A stretch of 39,637 bases of DNA, taken from positions 1-39,637 of the forward strand of contig JABDFQ010000015.1 of NCBI GenBank assembly GCA_013286495.1. Direction: 5' to 3'. Source of the DNA: Gammaproteobacteria bacterium (GTDB lineage Bacteria > Pseudomonadota > Gammaproteobacteria > DSM-16500). Below are positions 1,210 to 12,360 of this stretch, in pieces. Every line of letters begins with the position of its first letter. Position 1 is the first letter of the stretch. The notes under the pieces were generated by a model that was not told the DNA's origin, did not search any database, and was given only the letters and a program-made list of their open reading frames with translations. A program made the position numbers and the translations under genes.

Positions 1210-1416
1210 ATGAATAAATTAAGTCATCGTGAAGTTCAGATCATTCAATACAAAGCACAGGGATTTACTGCGAAGGAAATCGCGAAATGTATTGGGCTTG
1301 AATATCGCACTATCGAAATTTATATCGGTTCCATTATTAAAAAACTGGAGGCAAAAAATATTGCGCACGCAGTTTATATTGCAGCGCAGGAAAATATTCT
1401 GAATCACTATCAATAA
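1210..1416 (+). CDS. Stand-alone LuxR-type (GerE) HTH DNA-binding protein
   Basis: The 68-aa product is almost entirely a LuxR C-terminal HTH domain: LSHREVQIIQ at the N-terminus, then FTAKEIAKCIGL, and a recognition helix in the stretch EYRTIEIYIGSIIKKL. There is no receiver or autoinducer-binding domain, so it is a single-domain regulator (like free GerE-type proteins). The ATG follows AGGAGA by 9 bases. It sits 92 bp upstream of the two precursor-peptide genes on the same strand, so it is the obvious candidate for the cluster's own transcriptional regulator; this role is inferred from position only. No signal-input domain is visible, so activity would have to be set by abundance, partner binding or modification. 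Confidence 0.85.
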   Translation: MNKLSHREVQIIQYKAQGFTAKEIAKCIGLEYRTIEIYIGSIIKKLEAKNIAHAVYIAAQENILNHYQ

Positions 1417-1433
1417 ACTGTATTTTTACAATA

Positions 1434-1462
1434 TTGGCACTTAAGCAAACATCAACAATAAT
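1434..1462 (+). promoter_or_regulatory. Putative sigma70 promoter of the precursor-peptide genes
   Basis: TTGGCA (1434-1439) and AATAAT (1457-1462) each match consensus at 5 of 6 bases and are separated by exactly 17 bases. Transcription would start near 1469, about 40 bases before the first precursor ATG. The short leader contains a small hairpin (CTCGC 1470-1474 with GCGAG 1481-1485). This would let the precursors be expressed separately from the regulator. Confidence 0.5.
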
Positions 1463-1508
1463 GCAATCACTCGCAATGTCGCGAGCAATAACAAAGGAGA
1501 AATTAATT

Positions 1509-1673
1509 ATGAGTAAGAATCGTATTTTAGCATTTAATCAGTCACGAAAATTATCTGAAAAAGAACTTGAAGATGTGTCTGCTGCAGGTATGACAACATA
1601 TGTATCAGGAGGAGTTACTTATAGTAGTTCTACCGGTTGGGATACCAAAGATCCTGATGTGACGTTCGATTAA
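1509..1673 (+). CDS. Graspetide-type RiPP precursor peptide 1
   Basis: A 54-aa peptide with a strong AAAGGAGA site 9 bases before its ATG; an in-frame TTG at 1434 lies upstream of that site and is not the start. Residues 1-26 form a leader with the bacteriocin-type pattern L15-S16-x2-E19-L20-x2-V23-x, but Ala25-Ala26 where Gly-Gly is usual. The core (27-54) begins G-M-T-T, has Thr/Ser-rich middle residues, and ends in an acidic stretch with D45, D48, D50 and D54. Thr/Ser hydroxyls followed by C-terminal acids are what graspetide ATP-grasp ligases join. A paralogous precursor follows 43 bp downstream and the ATP-grasp gene after that. The specific ring pattern is inference. Confidence 0.82.
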   Translation: MSKNRILAFNQSRKLSEKELEDVSAAGMTTYVSGGVTYSSSTGWDTKDPDVTFD

Positions 1674-1716
1674 AGTATGTTTAAAAATTACCAACATAAA
1701 CAATGAGGGAATTAAT

Positions 1717-1884
1717 ATGAATAAAAGTCGAATTTTAGCTTTTAATCAATCCAGAAAATTATCAGCTGATGATCTTGAAGATATATCTGCAGCTGGTTTA
1801 ACAACTTCTGTATGCGCTGGTGCTACGTATGGATATCCTGGTGGTTTGGATGATCCGCATGTTGATGTAAATGTTGATTTTTAA
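1717..1884 (+). CDS. Graspetide-type RiPP precursor peptide 2
   Basis: A 55-aa paralogue of the preceding peptide, short enough to be missed by gene callers. ATG follows GAGGGA by 7 bases. The first 27 residues match peptide 1 at 21 positions, including RILAFNQSRKLS and the SAAG junction. The core has diverged (with Cys33 and Pro41) but aligns without gaps to peptide 1 at T29, T30, V32, G35, T37, Y38, G43, D45, D50, V51 and D54. Conserved hydroxyls (T29, T30, T37) and conserved acids (D45, D50, D54) are therefore equal in number, which suggests up to three side-chain esters in each product. The gene lies 51 bp upstream of the ATP-grasp gene, with a hairpin in between. Confidence 0.82.
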   Translation: MNKSRILAFNQSRKLSADDLEDISAAGLTTSVCAGATYGYPGGLDDPHVDVNVDF

Positions 1885-1890
1885 AACATG

Positions 1891-1912
1891 CCCCCGCATG
1901 CAAGTGCGGGGG
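1891..1912 (+). promoter_or_regulatory. GC-rich hairpin between precursor genes and ATP-grasp gene
   Basis: An 8-bp perfect stem (CCCCCGCA 1891-1898 with TGCGGGGG 1905-1912) and a 6-base loop lie 7 bases after the precursor 2 stop and 23 bases before the ATP-grasp ATG. It stands out in AT-rich DNA. It is followed by AAAAA rather than a T run, so it is not a classical intrinsic terminator. An mRNA-stabilising or processing hairpin that raises precursor over enzyme levels is the likeliest role (inference). Confidence 0.55.
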
Positions 1913-1935
1913 AAAAATTAGAAAAGGAGAAAAAT

Positions 1936-3030
1936 ATGGTCAAAGTTTTAATTCCTACCAAACCAGATGACAATGATGCTTTATATGTAAAATTGGCACT
2001 GGAAAAACGTGGACACGAATGTGTTGTATGGTACACAGCTGATTTCCCGCAAAAACAAACACATTCATTCGAATTATTTCAGAATAAAATTTACTGGAGT
2101 GCCAGAGGAGTCGATTTTCGCGTCAATCCCGATGATCATTTCGGAGTAGTGTGGTATCGACGTCCGCGTCAGCCTTGTTTGCCAGATGCAATTCATCCAG
2201 ATGATATTCCAAATGCAAGGAATGAAAATTTAGCATTATTTAAAACATTCTGGCATGTTCTTGCGCCTAATGCATTCTGGATAAATCCGGTTGATGCATC
2301 AAATAAAGCTAGTTGTAAATTATTGCAATTAAGGGTTGCGATGGAAGTTGGCCTGAATATTCCAGATACTTTATTCTCCAATGATCCGGGTCAAATTAAA
2401 GTTTTTATTGATCGTTATAATAATGAAAATGTCATCTATAAAACATTACATCCACTTATCTGGATCAATCAGGAAGAAATGCGTTTAACTTATACAAATG
2501 AAATAAAAATTGAAAATCTTCCTTCTGATACGATTTTGCAATATACGCCAGGAATTTTTCAGAACAAAGTAGCCAAGCAATTCGAACTTCGTGTTACATA
2601 TTTTGGCGAGCATTATGTTGCTGTCAAGATAGATTCACAGCAGGATCAGCGTAGCAAAATGGATTGGCGCAATGTTCCGGGTCATCAGTTGCAACTTTCT
2701 GAATTTCAACTTCCAGATGAAATCGATGCGAAATGCAAGGCACTAATGAGGAAAATGGGTTTGGTCATGGGTTGTTTTGACATGATAGTTACACCAGATA
2801 ATGAATATTATTTTCTTGAAGTAAATGAGCAAGGACAATTTTTATGGGTAGAGGAGTATCTTCCAGATGTGAGAATGCTTGATATGTTTTGCAACTTTAT
2901 TATCAATGGTTCCATGTCATATGGGAAAGCTTCACCAAAACCTGTTCGTATGACTGATTTAAGATCTCATATTTATGATTTAAAAAAAGATGTAATGGAT
3001 AAACACGTAAAACCAGCTGATAGATATTAA
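1936..3030 (+). CDS. ATP-grasp ligase of the graspetide (microviridin-type) family
   Basis: A 364-aa cytoplasmic enzyme. The family activates Asp/Glu side chains of a precursor peptide as acyl-phosphates with ATP and closes omega-ester or omega-amide rings. Visible family features are an N-terminal pre-ATP-grasp domain with WYRRPRQP, then NPVDASNKASCKLLQLRVA and IPDTLFSND at the domain junction, a K in VIYKTLHP, the central ELRVTYFGEHYVAVKIDSQ stretch followed by DWRN, and the metal-binding C-terminal part with D282 (GCFD) and E295-x-N297 (FLEVNEQGQFLW). I chose ATG 1936 because AAAAGGAGA precedes it; an in-frame ATG at 1888 would put coding sequence through the hairpin. Its nearest neighbours, two peptides with a shared leader and Thr/Asp cores, are the expected substrates. 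Whether it makes esters only, or also amides, cannot be told from sequence. Confidence 0.9.
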   Translation: MVKVLIPTKPDDNDALYVKLALEKRGHECVVWYTADFPQKQTHSFELFQNKIYWSARGVDFRVNPDDHFGVVWYRRPRQPCLPDAIHPDDIPNARNENLALFKTFWHVLAPNAFWINPVDASNKASCKLLQLRVAMEVGLNIPDTLFSNDPGQIKVFIDRYNNENVIYKTLHPLIWINQEEMRLTYTNEIKIENLPSDTILQYTPGIFQNKVAKQFELRVTYFGEHYVAVKIDSQQDQRSKMDWRNVPGHQLQLSEFQLPDEIDAKCKALMRKMGLVMGCFDMIVTPDNEYYFLEVNEQGQFLWVEEYLPDVRMLDMFCNFIINGSMSYGKASPKPVRMTDLRSHIYDLKKDVMDKHVKPADRY

Positions 3031-3060
3031 TCATTTTAATTATCAATAAGGAGAGTGAAG

Positions 3061-4140
3061 ATGTTGTTCAAGACAAGCTGTCAATTTTTATTATTTGTTT
3101 TTGTCATGTGTATGTCTGTGTTTTCAGCGCAAGCAGGTGAGAATACGCCGTATTTTGTGGATGTCTATCGAAGTAGGCAAATTAATAGCGAGCAAATTAT
3201 CAGTAAATTTGGTAAGCAACTTCAGGAAATTGCAAATATATATGGCGACAGAAGGAATCTTGAGAAGAATGCGCTTAAAGCTGTTACATTAAAGGATAAT
3301 CTTGATAAGCAGTTAAAAAAATTAGGAGATTTTTCATACATTGAATTGTCACTAATTCAATACCCGCTGAATAGGAAAATTTATTTTACGATTGATGTAA
3401 TCGATAAAATTGATCAAAATCGTCTTCCTCACTTTACGTCTTATCCCCATCATTCTGTTACTGATCCATATAATCTGGTTAAATCCTGGCGGACATATGA
3501 ACTAACAGCGATGAGACTATCATGGAATGGCGATTTGAAACAGGTAAAATCTTGTTCTCAATTGCATTGTGTTTATGGATTTGAACATGCAGATTTAAAA
3601 AAATATGAAAATATTTTTGATACAAAAGTGCCAAAATCAAAATCACAATTAATAAAGGTTTTACGATATGACAAAGATGAATATAACCGTGCAGCTGCTG
3701 CTTATCTTTTAGGTCATCTTCGTAATGGGCAGGAATTAATTAGTATTTTGAAGCCATACATGTGGCAATCCAGCTCAGCAGTACGCAATGCTGTCATGCG
3801 TGTGATGGGAGTGGCATTGTTGAACATGAAGGCTACACATCCTGATTTTCCGATAAAAGATGCCGTAACTGCTTTGGATTTTCCGACTTTAACGGACAGG
3901 AATAAAGCTTTAGTTATTCTTTCAGCTCTGGCAAATCAGCCGCGATATGCAAAATATATCATCCAGCACGCCAGTGATAATTTAATGGAAGAGTTAAAAC
4001 AGGTGCAGTTGAATGTCCATGGTCTTGCATATGATACTTTGCGCAACATGAGTCATCAAAAATACGGTGAAAGGGATTATGCAGCCTGGGAAGCATGGTT
4101 GGCGAAGAAAAAGCAGGAATATGCAAAGCAACAAAGCTGA
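3061..4140 (+). CDS. Secreted HEAT-like helical repeat protein of the RiPP cluster
   Basis: A 359-aa protein of unknown function. It starts with a clear Sec signal peptide (hydrophobic residues about 6-21, cleavage likely after SAQA), so the mature protein should be periplasmic. Residues about 200-260 contain paired amphipathic helices with HEAT-like spacing (RAAAAYLLGHL, then AVRNAVMRVMGVAL), and the C-terminal part is also helical and Lys/Gln-rich. AAGGAGA at 3048-3054 is well placed for ATG 3061; an in-frame GTG at 3055 is too close to it. It lies 30 bp after the ATP-grasp gene and before the exporter, hence probably belongs to the pathway. Immunity protein, periplasmic chaperone or product receptor are all possible; none can be shown from sequence. 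Confidence 0.75.
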   Translation: MLFKTSCQFLLFVFVMCMSVFSAQAGENTPYFVDVYRSRQINSEQIISKFGKQLQEIANIYGDRRNLEKNALKAVTLKDNLDKQLKKLGDFSYIELSLIQYPLNRKIYFTIDVIDKIDQNRLPHFTSYPHHSVTDPYNLVKSWRTYELTAMRLSWNGDLKQVKSCSQLHCVYGFEHADLKKYENIFDTKVPKSKSQLIKVLRYDKDEYNRAAAAYLLGHLRNGQELISILKPYMWQSSSAVRNAVMRVMGVALLNMKATHPDFPIKDAVTALDFPTLTDRNKALVILSALANQPRYAKYIIQHASDNLMEELKQVQLNVHGLAYDTLRNMSHQKYGERDYAAWEAWLAKKKQEYAKQQS

Positions 4141-4148
4141 TCTGCTAC

Positions 4149-4446
4149 GAAGAGCGATTCTTATCCTGCGGATTTTTTTGAAGTAACTTACAAAGAGCGA
4201 TTCTTATCCTGCGGATTTTTTGAAGTAACTTACGAAGAGCGATTCTTATCCTGCGGATTATTTGAAGTAACTTACGAAGAGCGATTCTTATCCTGCGGAT
4301 TTTTTGAAGTAACTTACGAAGAGCGATTCTTATCCTGCGGATTTTTTGAAGTAACTTGCGAAGAGCGATTCTTATCCTGCGGATTTTTTGAAGTAATTTA
4401 CGAAGAACCATCCTTATTCTGTGGATTTTTTGAAGTAATTTACTAC
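4149..4446. repeat. 42-bp tandem repeat array, seven copies
   Basis: Seven head-to-tail copies begin at 4149, 4192, 4234, 4276, 4318, 4360 and 4402, with an eighth partial start at 4447. The unit opens with GAAGAGCGATTCTTATCCTG and ends with TGAAGTAACTTAC. Six units are 42 or 43 bp; the first has one extra T. The inner copies are nearly identical, while the last full copy carries several substitutions, as in an array that expands by slippage. There are no spacers, so it is not CRISPR. Because 42 is divisible by 3, the complement stays open as a basic 14-residue repeat, but I do not regard that as a gene. Together with the hairpin after it, it fills the 425-bp gap between the HEAT-like and HlyD-like genes. 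Confidence 0.92.
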
Positions 4447-4456
4447 GAAGAGCGAT

Positions 4457-4494
4457 CCCCTCTCCCGGAGCGTTTCTCAGCGAGGGGAGAGGGG
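4457..4494. repeat. Inverted repeat next to the tandem array
   Basis: CCCCTCTCCC (4457-4466) is the exact complement of GGGAGAGGGG (4485-4494) across an 18-base loop. There is no T run, so it is more like a REP-type palindrome than a terminator. The loop segment GAGCGTTTCTCAGCGAG matches at 15 of 17 bases a piece of the long palindrome after mutS (37073-37089). Confidence 0.6.
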
Positions 4495-4565
4495 GAGGGG
4501 TGAGGGCATTGATATAAAAATCCTCTCTCTATTTCATCAACTCATACATACACAAGTTCACACCC

Positions 4566-5408
4566 ATGCAAAATCGACATCTTTTTCGTGAAAATGCGCT
4601 CAAGCGGCTGGACTCAGCAGAAGAAATTCAGGCATCCCTGATCATCCTCAAGCCAGCCGCCTGGTTTTGGTTACTCCTCGCCAGTTTATTGATCGCTAGC
4701 ATATTTATCTGGTCAATCTACGGAAGATTGACCATGACCATTTCTTCTCCCGGTATATTATTACCAGCGAAGCAGCTTAATTATATCGAACAAATCATGA
4801 AGGAAAATATGCATGACAGAAAACAAAGATTAAGTCAGCTCAAAAAAATACTGGATGACAAACGTGTGTTATATAAACAGCATTATTTATCAATCATGGA
4901 TATGCAACGAGCAGAGGAAGAATATCTTGCTGCAAAAACAGACTTGCTAAATACCTCGCATGTTCTTAATCCATACGCACAACAATCACTTTTTTCTTAT
5001 CCGGCAGCAGATAAAAATGATGATTATTTTGCACTCGTATTTATTGGAAACAAGGAAGGCAAGAAAATCCGCAAAGACATGCAAGCACTCATATTGCCGA
5101 ACAATTTATCACCGTATGAATATGGATACATCAAGGGTTCTGTTATAGCCATCTCCCGCTATCCAATTTCAAGGGATATAGCTTATTACTATCTTGGCAA
5201 TAGCAGTCTGGTTGATGAATATTTTGCTAATGGTGCGCCATTCATCGTCAAAATCAAGCTTGATAAAAAACAGGCAGCACAATTTGCATGGTCATCTAAC
5301 CGTAGTCCACCATTCAGCATTGATAGTGGTAGCACAGTAACAGTTAAAATCATCAACAAAAATGCTTCACCTATCAACTATCTTTTTCATTCTGAATATG
5401 AGTCCTGA
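4566..5408 (+). CDS. HlyD-like secretion protein of an NHLM-type RiPP exporter, short form
   Basis: A 280-aa inner-membrane-anchored adaptor. It has a cytoplasmic N-terminus starting LFRENALKRLDSAEEIQ, one TM helix (about residues 32-52), a periplasmic helical hairpin (about 75-125), and a C-terminal beta domain with the NHLM-HlyD signature: EGKKIRKDMQALILP, then YEYGYIKGSVIAIS, LGNSSLV and AWSSNRSPPFSIDSGS. Compared with usual HlyD-type proteins the first half of the lipoyl/barrel-sandwich domain is missing: after SPGILLPA the sequence goes directly into the coiled coil. No convincing Shine-Dalgarno sequence precedes ATG 4566. The downstream transporter gene overlaps or abuts the stop, so expression is probably coupled. 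Family membership is firm; the missing half-domain is read from the translation. Confidence 0.83.
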   Translation: MQNRHLFRENALKRLDSAEEIQASLIILKPAAWFWLLLASLLIASIFIWSIYGRLTMTISSPGILLPAKQLNYIEQIMKENMHDRKQRLSQLKKILDDKRVLYKQHYLSIMDMQRAEEEYLAAKTDLLNTSHVLNPYAQQSLFSYPAADKNDDYFALVFIGNKEGKKIRKDMQALILPNNLSPYEYGYIKGSVIAISRYPISRDIAYYYLGNSSLVDEYFANGAPFIVKIKLDKKQAAQFAWSSNRSPPFSIDSGSTVTVKIINKNASPINYLFHSEYES

Positions 5409-7569
5409 TATGCGCTTTGGAAAAGTCAAAACACCGGTATATTTGCAATTTTCTGAAACAGAATGCGGCATTGCCTCGTTGGCGATGGTGTTTGCGTATT
5501 ATAAAAACATTGTGCCTTTACATAGCTTGCGTGAAAAAACTGGTGCATCGAGAGATGGCTGCAAAGCATCTACATTAATGAGACTCGCCAAAGATTATGG
5601 TTATCGCACTGAATCATATTCAGTTGACATAAGCGAGCTAAAGCTATTACGACAGCCAGTCATTGCATACTGGAATTTCAGCCACTATGTTGTCATTAAT
5701 GGATTCAGCGGCAATAAAGTCAGTATTAATGATCCAGCTTGTGGTCATAGACTGGTTGATATGGATGAATTCGATAAATCGTTTACAGGCATTATCATTG
5801 TCATCACACCGACAAAAAACATCATCAGGCAAACATCAGAAAACATTCTCTTTAAGTTATTCAGGCAATGGATAAAAAAATATTATAAGGAAATTCTGTT
5901 TATCATGATCTGTTTACTAATATCGGCTGTCATACCATTATTGCAGACCAACTTATCAACCTTATTCATTAATTACTGCATTATTTACAGCAATCAGGAC
6001 TGGATCCCCTGGCTTTGTGCCATATTGACATCGCTCATGATGTGCTTATGTATTACTGATATTTATCAAAAATATAAATTATTTCAATTATGCGCAACAG
6101 AAAGCATGGTCAAATCTGCTCAAATTATTCAGCAAAGTCTTGTGTTGCCATTGCAGTTTTATGCTTTGAATCAAAAATCATTTCTGATCATTATGCTTTC
6201 ACGTGCAGAAATAATTATAAATTCACTCCTGAAAAATATTGGCAGTATATCGACTCAGGCTATTCTTATTTTAGTATGTTCGATATTCATGGCGACACTG
6301 GATACCTATTTATTTTTTACTTCCATGATCCTGATCTTGCTAACCATGCAAACAGGCATAATCATTCAGCGGCGCAATCTCGAGAATGATAAATCGCGTC
6401 TGCATTTTCTTGGCAAATGGCATGCACATACCTTATCTTTGGTGCGCAACAAGGAAACGATCAATGCTTGCGGGCTGGAATCAGGCATGCTTGCTAACTG
6501 GCGTGGTCTGTATCATCAAAAATTGAATTTACAGCAAACGAGCAATTATTTTCTTGCATTAAGTGAATCTATTAATGGTTGTTTTAGTTCGATAGCGACA
6601 TTTGCAATATTTGTCATGGGTGGCATGCGCATAGCACAAGGTCATTTATCCATTGGTCATTTAATGGGATATTTTGCCTTGCATTCCATTCTGCAAAATA
6701 ATCTGACATCCATCATTCAGGTAATGAAAGACTGGCAGGAAGCTCAGCTTTCCTATATGCGCATACATGATCTTTTCCAGCGGCAAAAAGATGAACGTTT
6801 TTTGGAAGGCAAAATAGATGCTCGGATAATGGATCAACCATTCCAGCTTAATTGTCAGCAAATATATTTTTATTACAATAAACTGAATCCTAAAACGGCT
6901 TTGCAAAATATTAATATTACGATTGCCTCACATCAGCATATTGCCATTGTTGGTAAAACAGGCTCAGGAAAATCCACATTGGCAAAATTATTATGTGGCC
7001 TGTACCAGCCTGATGAAGGTGAAATCACTTTAAATCACACTAATATTCGAGACTTATCAGCAGCATCATTATCGAAATCATTTGCATATTTATCACAGGA
7101 TGTTGCGTTATTTGCTGGAACTATTCATGAAAACCTGGTGTTATGGGCAGAAGATGTTTCGCCTGATCTCATCAAAACAGCGATTGAAGTTGCCTGCTTG
7201 CGTGATCTGATTGCCGCACGTGGGTTGTATGGAAAAGTTGAAGAAAATGGCAGTAATTTTAGTGGTGGAGAAAGACAGCGCATTGAAATTGCACGTGCCA
7301 TTATACAAAATACACCGATCCTGATTCTGGATGAGGCAACTTCAGCGCTGGATATACACACGGAAGCAAAAATCATTGCAAATTTGCGACAATTAAATAA
7401 AACCATTGTGTTCATAGCACATCGTTTATCCACCATAAAACATTGCGATAATATTTATGTGCTCGAAAATGGGAAGCTAATGGAGCAGGGAAATCATGCT
7501 GTGCTCTATGCGAAAAAGCTTGCTTATTATCATTTGCTCCAATTGGAAGAAAAGGATCAGGCAGCATGA
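5398..7569 (+). CDS. Peptidase-containing ABC transporter (C39 + TM + ATPase), NHLM type
   Basis: About 723 aa. It cleaves leader peptides and exports the core across the inner membrane. Numbering from ATG 5398, the N-terminal C39 protease domain (about 12-140) has an intact triad: C23 in ETECGIAS, H96 in FSHYVVI and D112 in INDPACG, with Q17 as oxyanion residue. Five or six TM helices follow (about 165-450). The ATPase has Walker A GKTGSGKST (about 519), signature FSGGERQR (about 621), Walker B ILILDEATSALD and the switch His in FIAHRLST. The start is uncertain: ATG 5398 overlaps the HlyD-like stop, ATG 5410 lies just after it, and ATG 5362 would add a long overlap. The next transporter gene overlaps by ATGA. 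Confidence 0.92.
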   Translation: MSPDMRFGKVKTPVYLQFSETECGIASLAMVFAYYKNIVPLHSLREKTGASRDGCKASTLMRLAKDYGYRTESYSVDISELKLLRQPVIAYWNFSHYVVINGFSGNKVSINDPACGHRLVDMDEFDKSFTGIIIVITPTKNIIRQTSENILFKLFRQWIKKYYKEILFIMICLLISAVIPLLQTNLSTLFINYCIIYSNQDWIPWLCAILTSLMMCLCITDIYQKYKLFQLCATESMVKSAQIIQQSLVLPLQFYALNQKSFLIIMLSRAEIIINSLLKNIGSISTQAILILVCSIFMATLDTYLFFTSMILILLTMQTGIIIQRRNLENDKSRLHFLGKWHAHTLSLVRNKETINACGLESGMLANWRGLYHQKLNLQQTSNYFLALSESINGCFSSIATFAIFVMGGMRIAQGHLSIGHLMGYFALHSILQNNLTSIIQVMKDWQEAQLSYMRIHDLFQRQKDERFLEGKIDARIMDQPFQLNCQQIYFYYNKLNPKTALQNINITIASHQHIAIVGKTGSGKSTLAKLLCGLYQPDEGEITLNHTNIRDLSAASLSKSFAYLSQDVALFAGTIHENLVLWAEDVSPDLIKTAIEVACLRDLIAARGLYGKVEENGSNFSGGERQRIEIARAIIQNTPILILDEATSALDIHTEAKIIANLRQLNKTIVFIAHRLSTIKHCDNIYVLENGKLMEQGNHAVLYAKKLAYYHLLQLEEKDQAA

Positions 7570-9302
7570 AAAATAGTTTTTTTGCACGATTGATGCATGA
7601 TAGTTCATTAATAAAAGATGATGTTACTCTGGTTGCAACCTATCAATCGCTTATCATCCATCTCATGCGCAATCACAAACGAAATGTATTTGCATGTCTC
7701 GTCATCATGATTTGCCTTTCAGCTACTACATTGTTACCAATCATGCTTAATCGTTTTGTACTCGATCATTTACACGAATATCAACGGACATTTATAGCAC
7801 CCATCATTGTATCTGCAACGCTCGTATTGATTGCGATCGCAATGCTTTTATATATAAAAAATCTGCTAATCAACAGGTTATCCATAACGCTCACATCGCA
7901 AATGTTGTTTGGATTATTCAAGCATTATCTTGATTTACCCATGCAGTTTACAAAAGATATGACCTCCAGTGATTTTACCCAGCGCTTTATGGAGTATGAA
8001 TCAGCGACTCTGGTTTCGATACGTAAAACTTTAGCAATGGTTTTTTCCATCGGTAGTGCAATTATATTGTTAATGTATATGTCTTATTGCGATATACAAC
8101 TCGCAATATTCAGTCTGATGATATGTCTGATATTTCTTCTGATTAGGTTAATCATCTTGTTTTCTGGCATGCCAGACATCAGTTGTCAAATGATGTTTCA
8201 GAGTCAGCTAGCGACTCTTTTAAATGAGATCATGTTGCAAATTCACAAGATACGCAGTGCAAATCGGGAGAGTTTTGCCTTTTCCAGATGGTTTAATAAT
8301 ATCATTCAGGAAAAAATGTGTGCTGAGAAAGTTATGCAGCGTGAAGTTAAAATCGGGATATTGCAGGTTTTATATTTACCTTGCCTGATGTTGTTAATAT
8401 ATGCCGTGATATATTTTTCGACATCAGTGCTGAATACCAATTTATTATTGCAATTGCTTATTTGCATTGGGCAATTAGCGATGATACTGGATCAAATTTG
8501 CATGGATATGGGAGCATTATTTCATTGTGTGCCAGCATTTCGACGTCTTGATAGAATTATTAATCAAAATATCAACACAGAAAATATACCGTATATGAAG
8601 CTGGATAATCCATCCACGATAAGATTTACCAGAGTAAGTTATCATGATTCAGTTGTGCAAAATATTTTGTTGCATGATATTGATCTTGAAATAAAATCAA
8701 ATAAAATTACAGCACTGATTGGTGCATCAGGTTCAGGTAAATCCACCTTATTAAGATTATTGACGGGAAGTATATTGCCAGTTTCAGGTGAGATTTTAAT
8801 TAACGAAAATAATATAAAAAATCTTGATCAAAACCATTTGCGTCGACAATTTGGGATTGTTTTGCAATCCAGTCATTTATTTCCTGGTACGATATTTTCG
8901 AATATATCCTGTCATCAGCAAATTACACATGAGCGTGCCTGGGAGCTGGCGAGATACGTTGGTCTGGATGCTGATATTGAAGCCATGCCGATGAAAATGA
9001 ATACATATGTTTCCGACAATTCTGCTGAATCCCTATCAGGTGGTCAGGTACAAAAAATTCTGATAGCACGTGCGCTGAGTGCTGATCCGAAAATATTATT
9101 GCTCGATGAAGCGACATCAGCACTGGATAATGCCAGCCAGGATAAAATATATCGCTATCTTAAAAGCATCGGTACCACGTGTCTGGTGATTGCGCATCGT
9201 CTGGGAACGATTAAGTATGCTGATCAGATTTATGTGCTGGAGAAAGGCAGAATCGTTAGCTCAGGGATATATGAAGAAATTGCAGCGAGTGGGTTTATTT
9301 AG
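7566..9302 (+). CDS. Second ABC transporter of the NHLM-type RiPP export pair
   Basis: A 578-aa half-transporter with no peptidase domain: a TM region (about residues 40-330) and a C-terminal ATPase with Walker A GASGSGKST (about 386), Walker B ILLLDEATSALD (about 510) and switch His in VIAHRLGT. The signature reads LSGGQVQK (490-497), where LSGGQRQR is usual. NHLM systems pair a C39-containing ABC protein with a second ABC protein and an HlyD protein, which is what stands here in order. The N-terminal extension common in this subfamily is short here (about 35 residues before the first TM helix). Start and upstream stop share ATGA, showing translational coupling; the two ABC proteins may form a heterodimer (inference). 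The stop overlaps that of the convergent phosphatase gene. Confidence 0.88.
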   Translation: MKNSFFARLMHDSSLIKDDVTLVATYQSLIIHLMRNHKRNVFACLVIMICLSATTLLPIMLNRFVLDHLHEYQRTFIAPIIVSATLVLIAIAMLLYIKNLLINRLSITLTSQMLFGLFKHYLDLPMQFTKDMTSSDFTQRFMEYESATLVSIRKTLAMVFSIGSAIILLMYMSYCDIQLAIFSLMICLIFLLIRLIILFSGMPDISCQMMFQSQLATLLNEIMLQIHKIRSANRESFAFSRWFNNIIQEKMCAEKVMQREVKIGILQVLYLPCLMLLIYAVIYFSTSVLNTNLLLQLLICIGQLAMILDQICMDMGALFHCVPAFRRLDRIINQNINTENIPYMKLDNPSTIRFTRVSYHDSVVQNILLHDIDLEIKSNKITALIGASGSGKSTLLRLLTGSILPVSGEILINENNIKNLDQNHLRRQFGIVLQSSHLFPGTIFSNISCHQQITHERAWELARYVGLDADIEAMPMKMNTYVSDNSAESLSGGQVQKILIARALSADPKILLLDEATSALDNASQDKIYRYLKSIGTTCLVIAHRLGTIKYADQIYVLEKGRIVSSGIYEEIAASGFI

Positions 9303-10584: not shown

Positions 10585-12360
10585 TTACTCCGCAATAAAA
10601 CCACCGGATTGTAATTTAAACAAGTTGGCATAAATGCCATTTTCCAGTTTCACTAATTCAGCATGCGTGCCTTCTTCGACAATTTTACCCGCATCGAATA
10701 CCAATATCCTGTCAGCATCGAGTATGGTTGAGAGTCGGTGCGCGATCATGATGGAAGTGCGATCTTGTGTAAGTTCATGCAAGGCATGCTGAATGGCAGA
10801 TTCACTTTCAGAATCGAGTGAGCTGGTGGCTTCATCGAGAATTAATATGGGACGATCAGCAAGAATCGCTCTTGCAATGGCAATGCGTTGTCTTTCACCG
10901 CCAGATAATTTGACGCCACGCTCACCCACCAGTGTTTCATATTGTAATGGCAAGCTCAGAATAAAATCTTCGATATGCGCTTTTTTCGCCGCATTACGAA
11001 TTTCTGTATCGCTCGCATCTGGTTTTGCATAAGCAATATTTTCACGCAAGCTGCGATGAAACAGAATGGGATCCTGCGGCACAAGACTCATGGCTCTACG
11101 TAATGACTGACGTGAACCTTGCTGAATATTTTGTCCATCAATGGTGATATCACCTTGCTGAATGGGATAAAGACATTGTAACAAGCGTATAAAAGTCGTT
11201 TTGCCAGAACCGGAATGTCCTACCAATGCAATGCGTTCGCCTGCTCTTATTTTTACAGAAAAATTATTAAATATTGGAGTAATTTTTTCAGGATAAGTAA
11301 ATTCGATATGGTCAAAAATAATTTCACCACGTGTAATATGCAAATCAGGTAATTGCAGATGCTGATCAACTTCAGGTTGTTCATCCAGTAAATCCATTAC
11401 ACCATGTAAATCATACGAGGAAGTGAGGAGGTTTTTGATATTTTCACCAACATCGCGAATATAGGATTGCATGATCGTGTACGCAAAAGCGAGATACGCC
11501 ATGTTTTCAACGCTTGCCATGCCATGAAAGAAATACCATGTGCCACCGCCCATGAGAATAGCGAGCATGCCGGTCAGTAAAATACGTTGTATAACGCCAG
11601 CAAAATTTCCGAGACGATACGCATGCAAATTTTTCGCACGTAGATTTTCTGTTACATCGAGAAAGCGTGAAATTTCGTAAGGTTCCTGCGCATACGATTT
11701 TGTCGGAAAAACACCACTAATATTATCAGCAAGATGAGCGCTAAAATAATCCTGGCCACGTGCATAAATACCTTGTGCAGGCCCTGAAATATTAAACACA
11801 ACAAAAGCACTCACAATGATGAATATGATGAGATAAGTCAGCAGAATTATTGCTAGCAATGGAAATTGAATGGCGAGAAAGATCAGGCTGCCGATAATAA
11901 TAATAGCAGTAGGAAAGATACGCACAATAATCTGATCTTCGAACACTTCAATTTTCTGGCGCGCACGATTGATTCGGGATACGATGCTGCCCGTAAAAGT
12001 GTTGGAGAAATAATTTTCTGGTAATCGGTAAACATGAGCAAATACATCATCTACCAGGGATTTGAAAATATGAGTTTCGAAAACATTGTAGATAAGATAA
12101 GCGACAGTAAACAGTAATGCCTGGACAAAATAAATGCCGAGAAAGATGAACAAGGTGATAAGAATTAAATTTCTATTATTATTCTGCTGAATGGCATTTA
12201 AAAAAGAAGCCAGTGCAGTTGGCAAATACGTTTCAAGCAATGCAGCGAGCAAAAGAATGCATAATATCAGGATTAGTTTGCTGGGTTGTCTTATCCAGTA
12301 TCCTGCAGCAAATTTCAGGACGTCTGTGAAAGATTGGGAAGATGGTGTTTTTTTATGCAT
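10585..12360 (-). CDS. ABC exporter half-transporter (MsbA/multidrug type)
   Basis: A 591-aa inner-membrane protein, full length for a TM-ATPase fusion. About six TM helices (residues 25-320) are followed by an ATPase with Walker A GHSGSGKTT, signature KLSGGERQRIAIARA, Walker B ILILDEATSSLD and switch His in MIAHRLST; all catalytic residues are present. Such proteins act as dimers and export lipids or drugs; the substrate is not predictable here. It is monocistronic as seen (93 bp to the gene on its 3' side, and a divergent promoter beyond its start). It is not closely linked to the RiPP exporter and differs from it in lacking a peptidase domain. Confidence 0.9.
   Translation of the reverse strand: MHKKTPSSQSFTDVLKFAAGYWIRQPSKLILILCILLLAALLETYLPTALASFLNAIQQNNNRNLILITLFIFLGIYFVQALLFTVAYLIYNVFETHIFKSLVDDVFAHVYRLPENYFSNTFTGSIVSRINRARQKIEVFEDQIIVRIFPTAIIIIGSLIFLAIQFPLLAIILLTYLIIFIIVSAFVVFNISGPAQGIYARGQDYFSAHLADNISGVFPTKSYAQEPYEISRFLDVTENLRAKNLHAYRLGNFAGVIQRILLTGMLAILMGGGTWYFFHGMASVENMAYLAFAYTIMQSYIRDVGENIKNLLTSSYDLHGVMDLLDEQPEVDQHLQLPDLHITRGEIIFDHIEFTYPEKITPIFNNFSVKIRAGERIALVGHSGSGKTTFIRLLQCLYPIQQGDITIDGQNIQQGSRQSLRRAMSLVPQDPILFHRSLRENIAYAKPDASDTEIRNAAKKAHIEDFILSLPLQYETLVGERGVKLSGGERQRIAIARAILADRPILILDEATSSLDSESESAIQHALHELTQDRTSIMIAHRLSTILDADRILVFDAGKIVEEGTHAELVKLENGIYANLFKLQSGGFIAE

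What the first reader, a model, noticed from the sequence alone, without database searches (positions are those of the whole stretch)
1210..9302. Complete graspetide-type RiPP gene cluster with an NHLM-type exporter
Seven + strand genes plus a promoter give a self-contained pathway: LuxR-type HTH, two precursors with a shared leader, graspetide-family ATP-grasp ligase, secreted HEAT-like protein, HlyD-like protein, C39-peptidase ABC transporter, second ABC transporter. ATP-grasp RiPP ligases and NHLM exporters are each known families. Finding both together in what looks like a Legionellales genome, with a short Ala-Ala leader rather than the long nitrile-hydratase or Nif11-type leaders often exported by NHLM systems, looks new to me, but I cannot search the literature here.
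Basis: partly seen in the sequence, partly recalled or inferred. Interest (0 to 1): 0.92.

Follow-up and report, generated by a model that had tools for sequence, protein, structure and literature searches.

The report
Legionellales graspetide cluster with HEAT-like partner
A bacterium related to Legionella carries a complete set of genes to make and export small ring-shaped peptides; the general kind is already known, but a secreted partner protein of unknown role that nearly always travels with it, and an unusually cut-down exporter, look undescribed.

Summary
In detail: eight + strand genes at 1210-9302 form a graspetide-type RiPP cluster with an NHLM-like exporter. The ATP-grasp protein is a divergent relative of microviridin ligases, not of RimK-type ligases. 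Both precursors share a 26-residue double-glycine-type leader (SAA|G) and a core ending D-x(3,4)-D-x3-D. The gene order recurs in three relatives, and a shorter version in Legionella adelaidensis. Its novelty claim does not hold: NHLM-type transporters are reported beside eight graspetide groups (PMC13097080), and a two-precursor Legionella pneumophila graspetide (Gra-7) was already made in E. coli with three dehydrations (PMC9576775). What seems undescribed: (1) a secreted HEAT/ARM-repeat protein stands beside this synthetase in eight of eight organisms read, and the 5 of 369 class genomes holding it are the five with the best synthetase scores; one distant G355 synthetase lacks it; (2) three of four clusters in the window's family have an HlyD-like adaptor without the lipoyl domain. 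Best reading: three-ring graspetides, cleaved and exported by a two-ABC NHLM-like pump, the HEAT-like protein acting in the periplasm (capture, export or immunity; inferred).

The parts
1210..1416 (+). 68-aa stand-alone LuxR/GerE-type helix-turn-helix protein, probable regulator
   Evidence: Pfam GerE 1.3e-14; similar ORF upstream of the precursor in L005 5531-5749 and L007 10490-10702, none listed just upstream of it in L006
1509..1673 (+). precursor peptide A, leader 26 aa ending VSAA, core GMTTYVSGGVTYSSSTGWDTKDPDVTFD
   Evidence: ORF after AAAGGAG; family alignments; core motif; no Pfam or NCBIfam match at E<=1
1717..1884 (+). precursor peptide B, leader 26 aa ending ISAA, core GLTTSVCAGATYGYPGGLDDPHVDVNVDF
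   Evidence: 59% identical to A; core motif; no Pfam or NCBIfam match at E<=1
1891..1912 (+). GC-rich hairpin between precursors and synthetase gene, possibly a partial terminator or 3'-end protector that keeps precursor mRNA above enzyme mRNA (inferred)
   Evidence: fold of 1882-1938 gives -19.1 kcal/mol, 0 of 300 shuffles as low; the terminator scan lists it with a T tail on the - strand only
1936..3030 (+). graspetide-synthetase-type ATP-grasp ligase, 364 aa
   Evidence: TIGR04187/04185/04184; 7m4s, 5ig9, 5ig8, 7mgv; scores below the curated cut-offs
3061..4140 (+). 359-aa protein with apparent signal peptide, alpha/beta N-terminal domain and C-terminal HEAT/ARM repeats; partner of this synthetase clade
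   Evidence: HEAT_2 1.5e-4, under the Pfam cut-off; model pLDDT 84.5; fold matches over about residues 131-353; co-occurrence
4146..4443 (.). 42-bp tandem repeat, 7.1 copies, between HEAT-like and HlyD-like genes
   Evidence: Tandem Repeats Finder; in the own assembly (67% complete) found only here; not at the equivalent junction in L005, L006, L007
4566..5408 (+). 280-aa shortened NHLM HlyD-like adaptor: membrane helix, short helical hairpin, C-terminal beta part; lipoyl part absent
   Evidence: TIGR03794 2.4e-33, best stretch 139-274 on profile 278-416 of 421; alignment with the 409-aa form in L007; model pLDDT only 69.9
5410..7569 (+). C39-peptidase-containing ABC transporter, NHLM ABC1-like (in-frame ATG at 5362, 5398 or 5410)
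   Evidence: Peptidase_C39 3.8e-36; TIGR03796 7.7e-177; Cys in ETECG, His in FSHYVV, Asp in INDPA (catalytic roles recalled), Walker A and signature motif
7566..9302 (+). second ABC transporter, NHLM ABC2-like, lacking the first about 120 profile positions
   Evidence: TIGR03797 1.9e-107, profile 123-674 of 686; Walker A, LSGGQ

Best explanation
This is a graspetide-type RiPP cluster of a Legionellales bacterium. Two precursors are made; the ATP-grasp ligase recognises the shared leader and joins Ser/Thr side chains of the core to three C-terminal Asp residues (D-x(3,4)-D-x3-D), most likely giving three ester or amide rings (inferred). The C39 domain of the first ABC transporter cuts after the SAA double-glycine-type site and, with the second ABC transporter and a shortened HlyD-like adaptor, exports the ringed core (inferred from families and alignment). 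The HEAT-like protein works in the periplasm on the released peptide, either helping its passage or protecting the producer (inferred; role open). Shown here: gene content, order, conservation, leader and core signature, family assignments, co-occurrence. Not shown: any chemistry, transport or activity.
For: Ligase families and nearest structures. Order precursor-ligase-HEAT-HlyD-C39 ABC in window, L005, L006, L007, in L. adelaidensis L077 and, exporter read by eye from ORFs, in G076 and G323. Leader alignment of 16 precursors from 12 loci of nine organisms. Core triad D-x(3,4)-D-x3-D in 12 of 13 precursors outside G355, 0-1 residues from the C-terminus in 11 of those 12, against 14-88 of 2000 shuffles of each such core. 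Three conserved Asp fit the three dehydrations reported for each Gra-7 precursor of L. pneumophila. C39, Walker A and signature motifs present.
Against: The ligase and the three exporter proteins score below the curated cut-offs of the models that fit them best (196.2 of 350; 115.7 of 156.2; 589.6 of 853.3; 360.5 of 709.4), so they are relatives, not certified members. The adaptor lacks the lipoyl part, which could mean a weakened pump, although three of four clusters of the family share it. Only 4 of 36 genomes of the order, the window included, carry the ligase. Three of three G355 precursors and one of two of G140 lack the Asp triad. The tandem repeat may put the exporter genes in another transcript.
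Confidence: 0.88

Rival explanations
1. The HEAT-like protein is a producer-immunity or sequestering protein: it sits in the periplasm and binds the mature graspetide.
For: N-terminal signal-peptide-like stretch in the members, by eye; helical repeats of the ARM/HEAT type, many of whose solved members bind peptides; G355 keeps at least two full-length copies (L091 4034-5017, L092 13542-14540) with no ligase or precursor match in the 9-18 kb read, as orphan immunity genes do elsewhere (recalled).
Against: No target or activity is known; these orphan copies are divergent (about 43 bits); adjacency to the ligase fits a biosynthetic role as well; one G355 ligase has no HEAT-like gene near it.
Confidence: 0.35
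2. The HEAT-like protein helps export or final folding: a periplasmic receptor that takes the peptide from the pump.
For: The gene lies between ligase and exporter genes in seven of eight loci (window, L005, L006, L007, L057, L058, L077; the eighth, L010 of G140, shows no exporter on its 4.2-kb contig). The N-terminal domain model has beta-alpha-alpha-beta-beta order; a profile of all N-terminal parts against POTRA domains of BamA gave 33% probability, six control pairs under 2%.
Against: The same comparison gave only 9.6% and 3.9% for the two groups taken apart, and the two groups' N-terminal parts match each other at only 19%; PF07244 listed no HEAT-like gene at E<=10 in eight genomes. POTRA likeness is a lead only. 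Clusters with a normal adaptor have the protein too.
Confidence: 0.35
3. The HEAT-like protein is a partner needed by the ligase in the cytoplasm, as MirC is for rosaritide.
For: Partner-dependent graspetide synthesis is published (PMC13097080, abstract, sections 5, 7, 8); the co-occurrence with the ligase is close.
Against: Signal-peptide-like N-termini. Gra-7 peptides of L. pneumophila were dehydrated three times when refactored with the ATP-grasp enzyme, no other gene being mentioned in the passage; whether that cluster belongs to this family I could not test. G355 has copies without a ligase nearby and a ligase without a copy.
Confidence: 0.12
4. The cluster is decaying: shortened adaptor and ABC2, inserted tandem repeat, patchy spread.
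For: HlyD-like 280 aa against 409 in L007; ABC2 starts at profile position 123; repeat array.
Against: All eight reading frames are open; catalytic motifs are present; the short adaptor is kept in two other genera at 39% and 34% identity, unlikely for a dead gene.
Confidence: 0.08

Closest known systems
Gra-7 graspetide of Legionella pneumophila, assigned to graspetide group 8 (PMC9576775; section 11 and passages seen)
   Same: Legionellales; two precursors beside one ATP-grasp ligase; leader of precursor A removed by the C39 protease LahT150; three dehydrations, matching the three conserved Asp here
   Different: Its sequences are in supplements I could not read, so sameness of family is not tested; exporter and any HEAT-like partner are not mentioned in the passages seen
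Uncharacterised cluster of Legionella adelaidensis NZ_LR134435
   Same: three precursors, ligase (39% identity), HEAT-like protein (31%), HlyD, C39 ABC transporter
   Different: adaptor fits the general type I HlyD model, one ABC transporter only, no LuxR-type gene beside it; precursors, ligase and HEAT-like gene annotated hypothetical
Microviridin-type ligases (AMdnB, 5ig8/5ig9 ligases, CdnC)
   Same: ATP-grasp ligases, best solved relatives
   Different: the precursors here lack the PFFARFL leader motif of microviridins (motif from PMC8939145); divergent by sequence
NHLM (nitrile hydratase leader microcin) export system, TIGR03794/03796/03797
   Same: HlyD-like plus C39-ABC plus second ABC, each hitting its NHLM model best
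   Different: below curated cut-offs; adaptor without lipoyl part; precursors match no leader model
Rosaritide (group 21) with partner protein MirC (PMC13097080, section 8)
   Same: ligase plus extra conserved partner plus TIGR03796 C39 transporter; Asp acceptors near the C-terminus
   Different: partner is a PpiC/SurA-like protein of an actinomycete, not a secreted HEAT-repeat protein

Membership tests
Graspetide biosynthetic cluster | ATP-grasp ligase of the microviridin/graspetide superfamily rather than RimK type | tested here: met
   TIGR04187 7.4e-58, TIGR04185 2.9e-57, TIGR04184 5.2e-53 against TIGR00768 rimK 1e-3; nearest PDB chains
Graspetide biosynthetic cluster | short precursor beside the ligase with conserved leader and a core holding Ser/Thr/Lys donors and Asp/Glu acceptors | tested here: met
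Graspetide biosynthetic cluster | side-chain ester or amide rings (18 Da lost per ring) | not testable with these tools
   needs mass spectrometry
Named ligase families TIGR04184/04185/04187 | score at or above the curated cut-off | tested here: not met
   180.3 of 475, 194.2 of 425, 196.2 of 350; PF21068 25.2 of 27
Graspetide group 8 (Gra-7) | ligase clusters with the Gra-7 ligase; same core motif | not testable with these tools
   Gra-7 sequences are not in the text seen; no supplement look-ups were allowed
NHLM export system | HlyD-like, C39-ABC1 and ABC2 with NHLM as best family | tested here: met
   TIGR03794, TIGR03796, TIGR03797 rank first
NHLM export system | curated equivalog cut-offs | tested here: not met
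   115.7 of 156.2, 589.6 of 853.3, 360.5 of 709.4
NHLM export system | substrate with NHLP or Nif11 leader | tested here: not met
   neither precursor matches any Pfam or NCBIfam model at E<=1
C39 double-glycine leader substrate | L-12, L-7, I/V-4 and small residues at -2,-1 (pattern recalled) | tested here: met
   LSEKELEDVSAA and LSADDLEDISAA, in register with SGG, SGA, SGS and AGG of relatives
HEAT/ARM repeat protein | helical repeat fold | tested here: met
POTRA domain | PF07244 or a clear profile match in the N-terminal part | tested here: inconclusive
   no HEAT-like gene among the 55 PF07244 places at E<=10; profile comparisons 33%, 9.6% and 3.9%

The most novel reading that the evidence does not exclude
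A Legionellales-specific graspetide group is defined by a near-constant secreted HEAT/ARM-repeat partner that captures the ringed peptide in the periplasm (immunity or hand-over), and in one family the pump has been rebuilt so that an adaptor without lipoyl domain suffices.
Probability: 0.32. Interest if true: 0.6.

Novelty: new variant of a known kind. Interest (0 to 1): 0.42.

Why it matters
Some graspetides are potent serine protease inhibitors (stated in PMC13097080), but how producers export them and protect themselves is little known. A partner protein that follows one ligase clade so closely is a concrete handle on one of these steps. The family also shows such peptides across several Legionellales lineages and gives a simple core signature for mining.

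Tried and rejected
Rejected: amino-acid or RimK-type ligase. Rejected: HEAT-like protein as a widespread family; found in 1 of 398 genomes of the phylum sample, the window's own, 5 of 369 of the class sample, the window included, 1 of 72,556 plasmid records. Rejected: HEAT-like protein as a general graspetide partner; no match in the 20 distant ligase loci L012-L031, in the whole genomes G067, G212 and G095 that hold weaker ligase matches, or in the Bradyrhizobium locus L078, which does have a precursor-like ORF before its ligase (1.2e-6). Against strictness: of three ligase genes of G355, two have a HEAT-like gene directly before them and the third (L061 6517-7272, shorter) has none; a second ligase piece of G140 near a contig end (L062 135-785) has none in view, and G140 has only one HEAT-like match. 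POTRA reading of the N-terminal domain: unproved. Foldseek and VIA matches covered the repeats, so nothing is concluded on the N-terminal fold. Promoter scan: at chance level. Viral collection: three distant ligases only. The HlyD model (pLDDT 69.9) matched MacA, EmrA, AcrA and MexA entries at TM-scores of about 0.2-0.3, enough only for the adaptor class. Ligase tree: many forks are weakly supported and one row (L014) was translated with 12 stops; I use the tree for nothing. Not found in print: 'graspetide'+'HEAT repeat' (0 papers), 'NHLM'+'HlyD'+'lipoyl' (0), 'ribosomally synthesized'+'Coxiellaceae' (0); related searches 'graspetide'+'Legionella' (3 hold both), 'Legionella'+'ATP-grasp'+'RiPP' (1), 'NHLM'+'ATP-grasp' (1), 'Legionella'+'biosynthetic gene cluster'+'microviridin' (1, listing only), 'graspetide' (37, listing). 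Only open-licence PMC papers were searched; a DOI I recalled for an earlier graspetide survey was not held.

Full report
What is there. Eight + strand genes fill 1210-9302: a 68-aa LuxR/GerE-type regulator, two precursors (1509-1673, 1717-1884), an ATP-grasp ligase (1936-3030), an apparently secreted HEAT-like protein (3061-4140), an HlyD-like adaptor (4566-5408), a C39-peptidase ABC transporter (to 7569) and a second ABC transporter (7566-9302). By eye, precursor A, the ligase and the HEAT-like gene have clear Shine-Dalgarno sequences; the HlyD-like gene follows a seven-copy 42-bp tandem repeat and has none.

The ligase. Its best curated models are the graspetide maturases (7e-58 to 5e-53), with rimK at 1e-3, but it stays below their cut-offs. 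The best solved relatives are AMdnB, two entries named ATP grasp ligase (5ig9, 5ig8) and CdnC. It is thus a divergent graspetide-type synthetase.

Relatives. In the window's order 4 of 36 genomes hold the ligase, the window included. The three others show the order precursor, ligase, HEAT-like, HlyD-like, C39 ABC; ABC1 runs off the contig in L005 and is crossed by unknown bases in L006, and ABC2 is seen in L007. Five close named records were seen: CAJCIZ010000029, JABDDA010000016, MGYH01000020, a Coxiellaceae MAG (CANJXG010000061) and Legionella adelaidensis NZ_LR134435. In L. adelaidensis there are three precursors, ligase, HEAT-like, HlyD and one C39 ABC transporter. That the window's family is the Aquicella lineage is my recollection of GTDB and comes from no call; Aquicella itself is Legionellales, Coxiellaceae in NCBI.

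Precursors. In 15 of 16 aligned precursors the leader begins R-[IV]-[LFM] and all 16 end it with [IV]-[SA]-[GA]-[GAS]. The window's SAA falls on the SGG of Legionella-type precursors; with the cut after it, the leader is 26 residues and the core 28 or 29. The triad D-x(3,4)-D-x3-D is in 12 of 13 precursors outside G355 and lies 0-1 residues from the end in 11 of those 12; shuffled cores show it in 14 to 88 of 2000. The miss is the second precursor of G140; three of three from G355 also lack it and carry Cys.

The HEAT-like protein. It stands directly after the ligase in eight of eight organisms (window, G033, G020, G011, G140, G076, G323, L. adelaidensis). In the more distant G355 it stands directly before two of three ligase genes and is missing at the third. 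In 369 genomes of the class it occurs in five, and these are the five with the highest ligase scores (313-669 bits) in the class search with the ligase, also of 369 genomes, where 18 had some match; the sixth by score, G067 at 187 bits, has no HEAT-like match. I take the two draws to be the same genomes, as the handles listed agree. G355's HEAT-like matches are weak (46 bits at best). The phylum sample has it in 1 of 398, the window itself. The genomes are related, so these counts are not independent. The model (pLDDT 84.5) gives an alpha/beta N-terminal domain and HEAT/ARM repeats. Twenty-two residues are invariant in eight members, among them C165, H169, VRN 241-243, R247 and DRNK 279-282. 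G355 has at least two further full-length copies with no ligase or precursor match in the stretch read.

The exporter. All three proteins hit NHLM models first but below cut-off. The adaptor is 280 aa here, 286 in G033 and 276 or 282 in G020 by start codon, against 409 in G011 of the window's own genus; by alignment the missing parts are those where the lipoyl domain and the base of the helical hairpin are expected, while a short hairpin remains in the model. ABC2 of the window starts at profile position 123, that of G011 at 81. In L057, L058 and L077 no second ABC transporter was seen beside the first. The two-ABC exporter is therefore a feature of the window's family, not of the whole ligase clade.

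Expression. A hairpin clearly stronger than shuffles (at most 7 of 300) lies between the last precursor and the ligase in six of eight loci, with unlike sequences; G033 is borderline (20 of 300, a 10-bp inverted repeat by eye) and G140 has none (161 of 300). A partial terminator keeping precursor above enzyme is the simplest reading (inferred).

Compared with the literature. PMC13097080 (abstract, sections 5, 7, 8 and passages) states that groups 2, 8, 14, 16, 18, 20, 21 and 23 have high co-occurrence with an NHLM-type transporter and describes the first partner-protein-dependent graspetides. PMC9576775 (section 11 and passages) made Gra-7 of L. pneumophila, group 8: two precursors, each expressed with the ATP-grasp enzyme, three dehydrations. 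PMC8939145 (section 5 and passages) lists C39 transporters and HlyD proteins among the commonest neighbours; 'legionell' and 'heat' do not occur in its main text. So the class, the exporter pairing and a Legionella graspetide are known; the HEAT-like partner and the reduced adaptor were not found in print within the searches named under Tried and rejected.

Verdict. Real, well-formed and mostly of a known kind, with one closely linked and unexplained partner that makes it worth a bench test.

Noticed in passing
4146-4443: 42-bp tandem repeat (7.1 copies) between HEAT-like and HlyD-like genes, found nowhere else in the own, incomplete assembly; on the minus strand it reads as a 14-residue basic repeat (LRKLLQKIRRIRIA).
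   Followed up: partly
L059, L060, L061, L091, L092 (G355): A related genome has three ligase-type genes with Cys-containing precursors that share the leader but not the Asp triad, and at least two full-length HEAT-like genes with no ligase match nearby; other chemistry is possible.
   Followed up: partly
L077 (NZ_LR134435.1): The L. adelaidensis record called plasmid 26 carries rpmH, rnpA, yidD, yidC and mnmE, genes usually found near the chromosomal origin (recalled), so it may be a chromosome fragment rather than a plasmid.
   Followed up: no
L008 (CAJCIZ010000029.1): Record labelled Myxococcales, yet the same stretch lies in G033, which is grouped in the window's family; the label looks wrong.
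   Followed up: no
L058 7820-7979: Near-perfect palindrome of over 40 bp per arm between precursor and ligase in G323, much larger than the hairpins of the other loci.
   Followed up: no
L078 8598-8912: Bradyrhizobium plasmid pCB82_1 has a precursor-like ORF (1.2e-6 to the family profile) before a ligase 36% identical to the window's, with no HEAT-like match and no annotated exporter within 9 kb.
   Followed up: partly
10585-12360: A third ABC transporter ORF (591 aa, by eye) on the minus strand just beyond the cluster; no counterpart was seen in the conserved order of the relatives.
   Followed up: no
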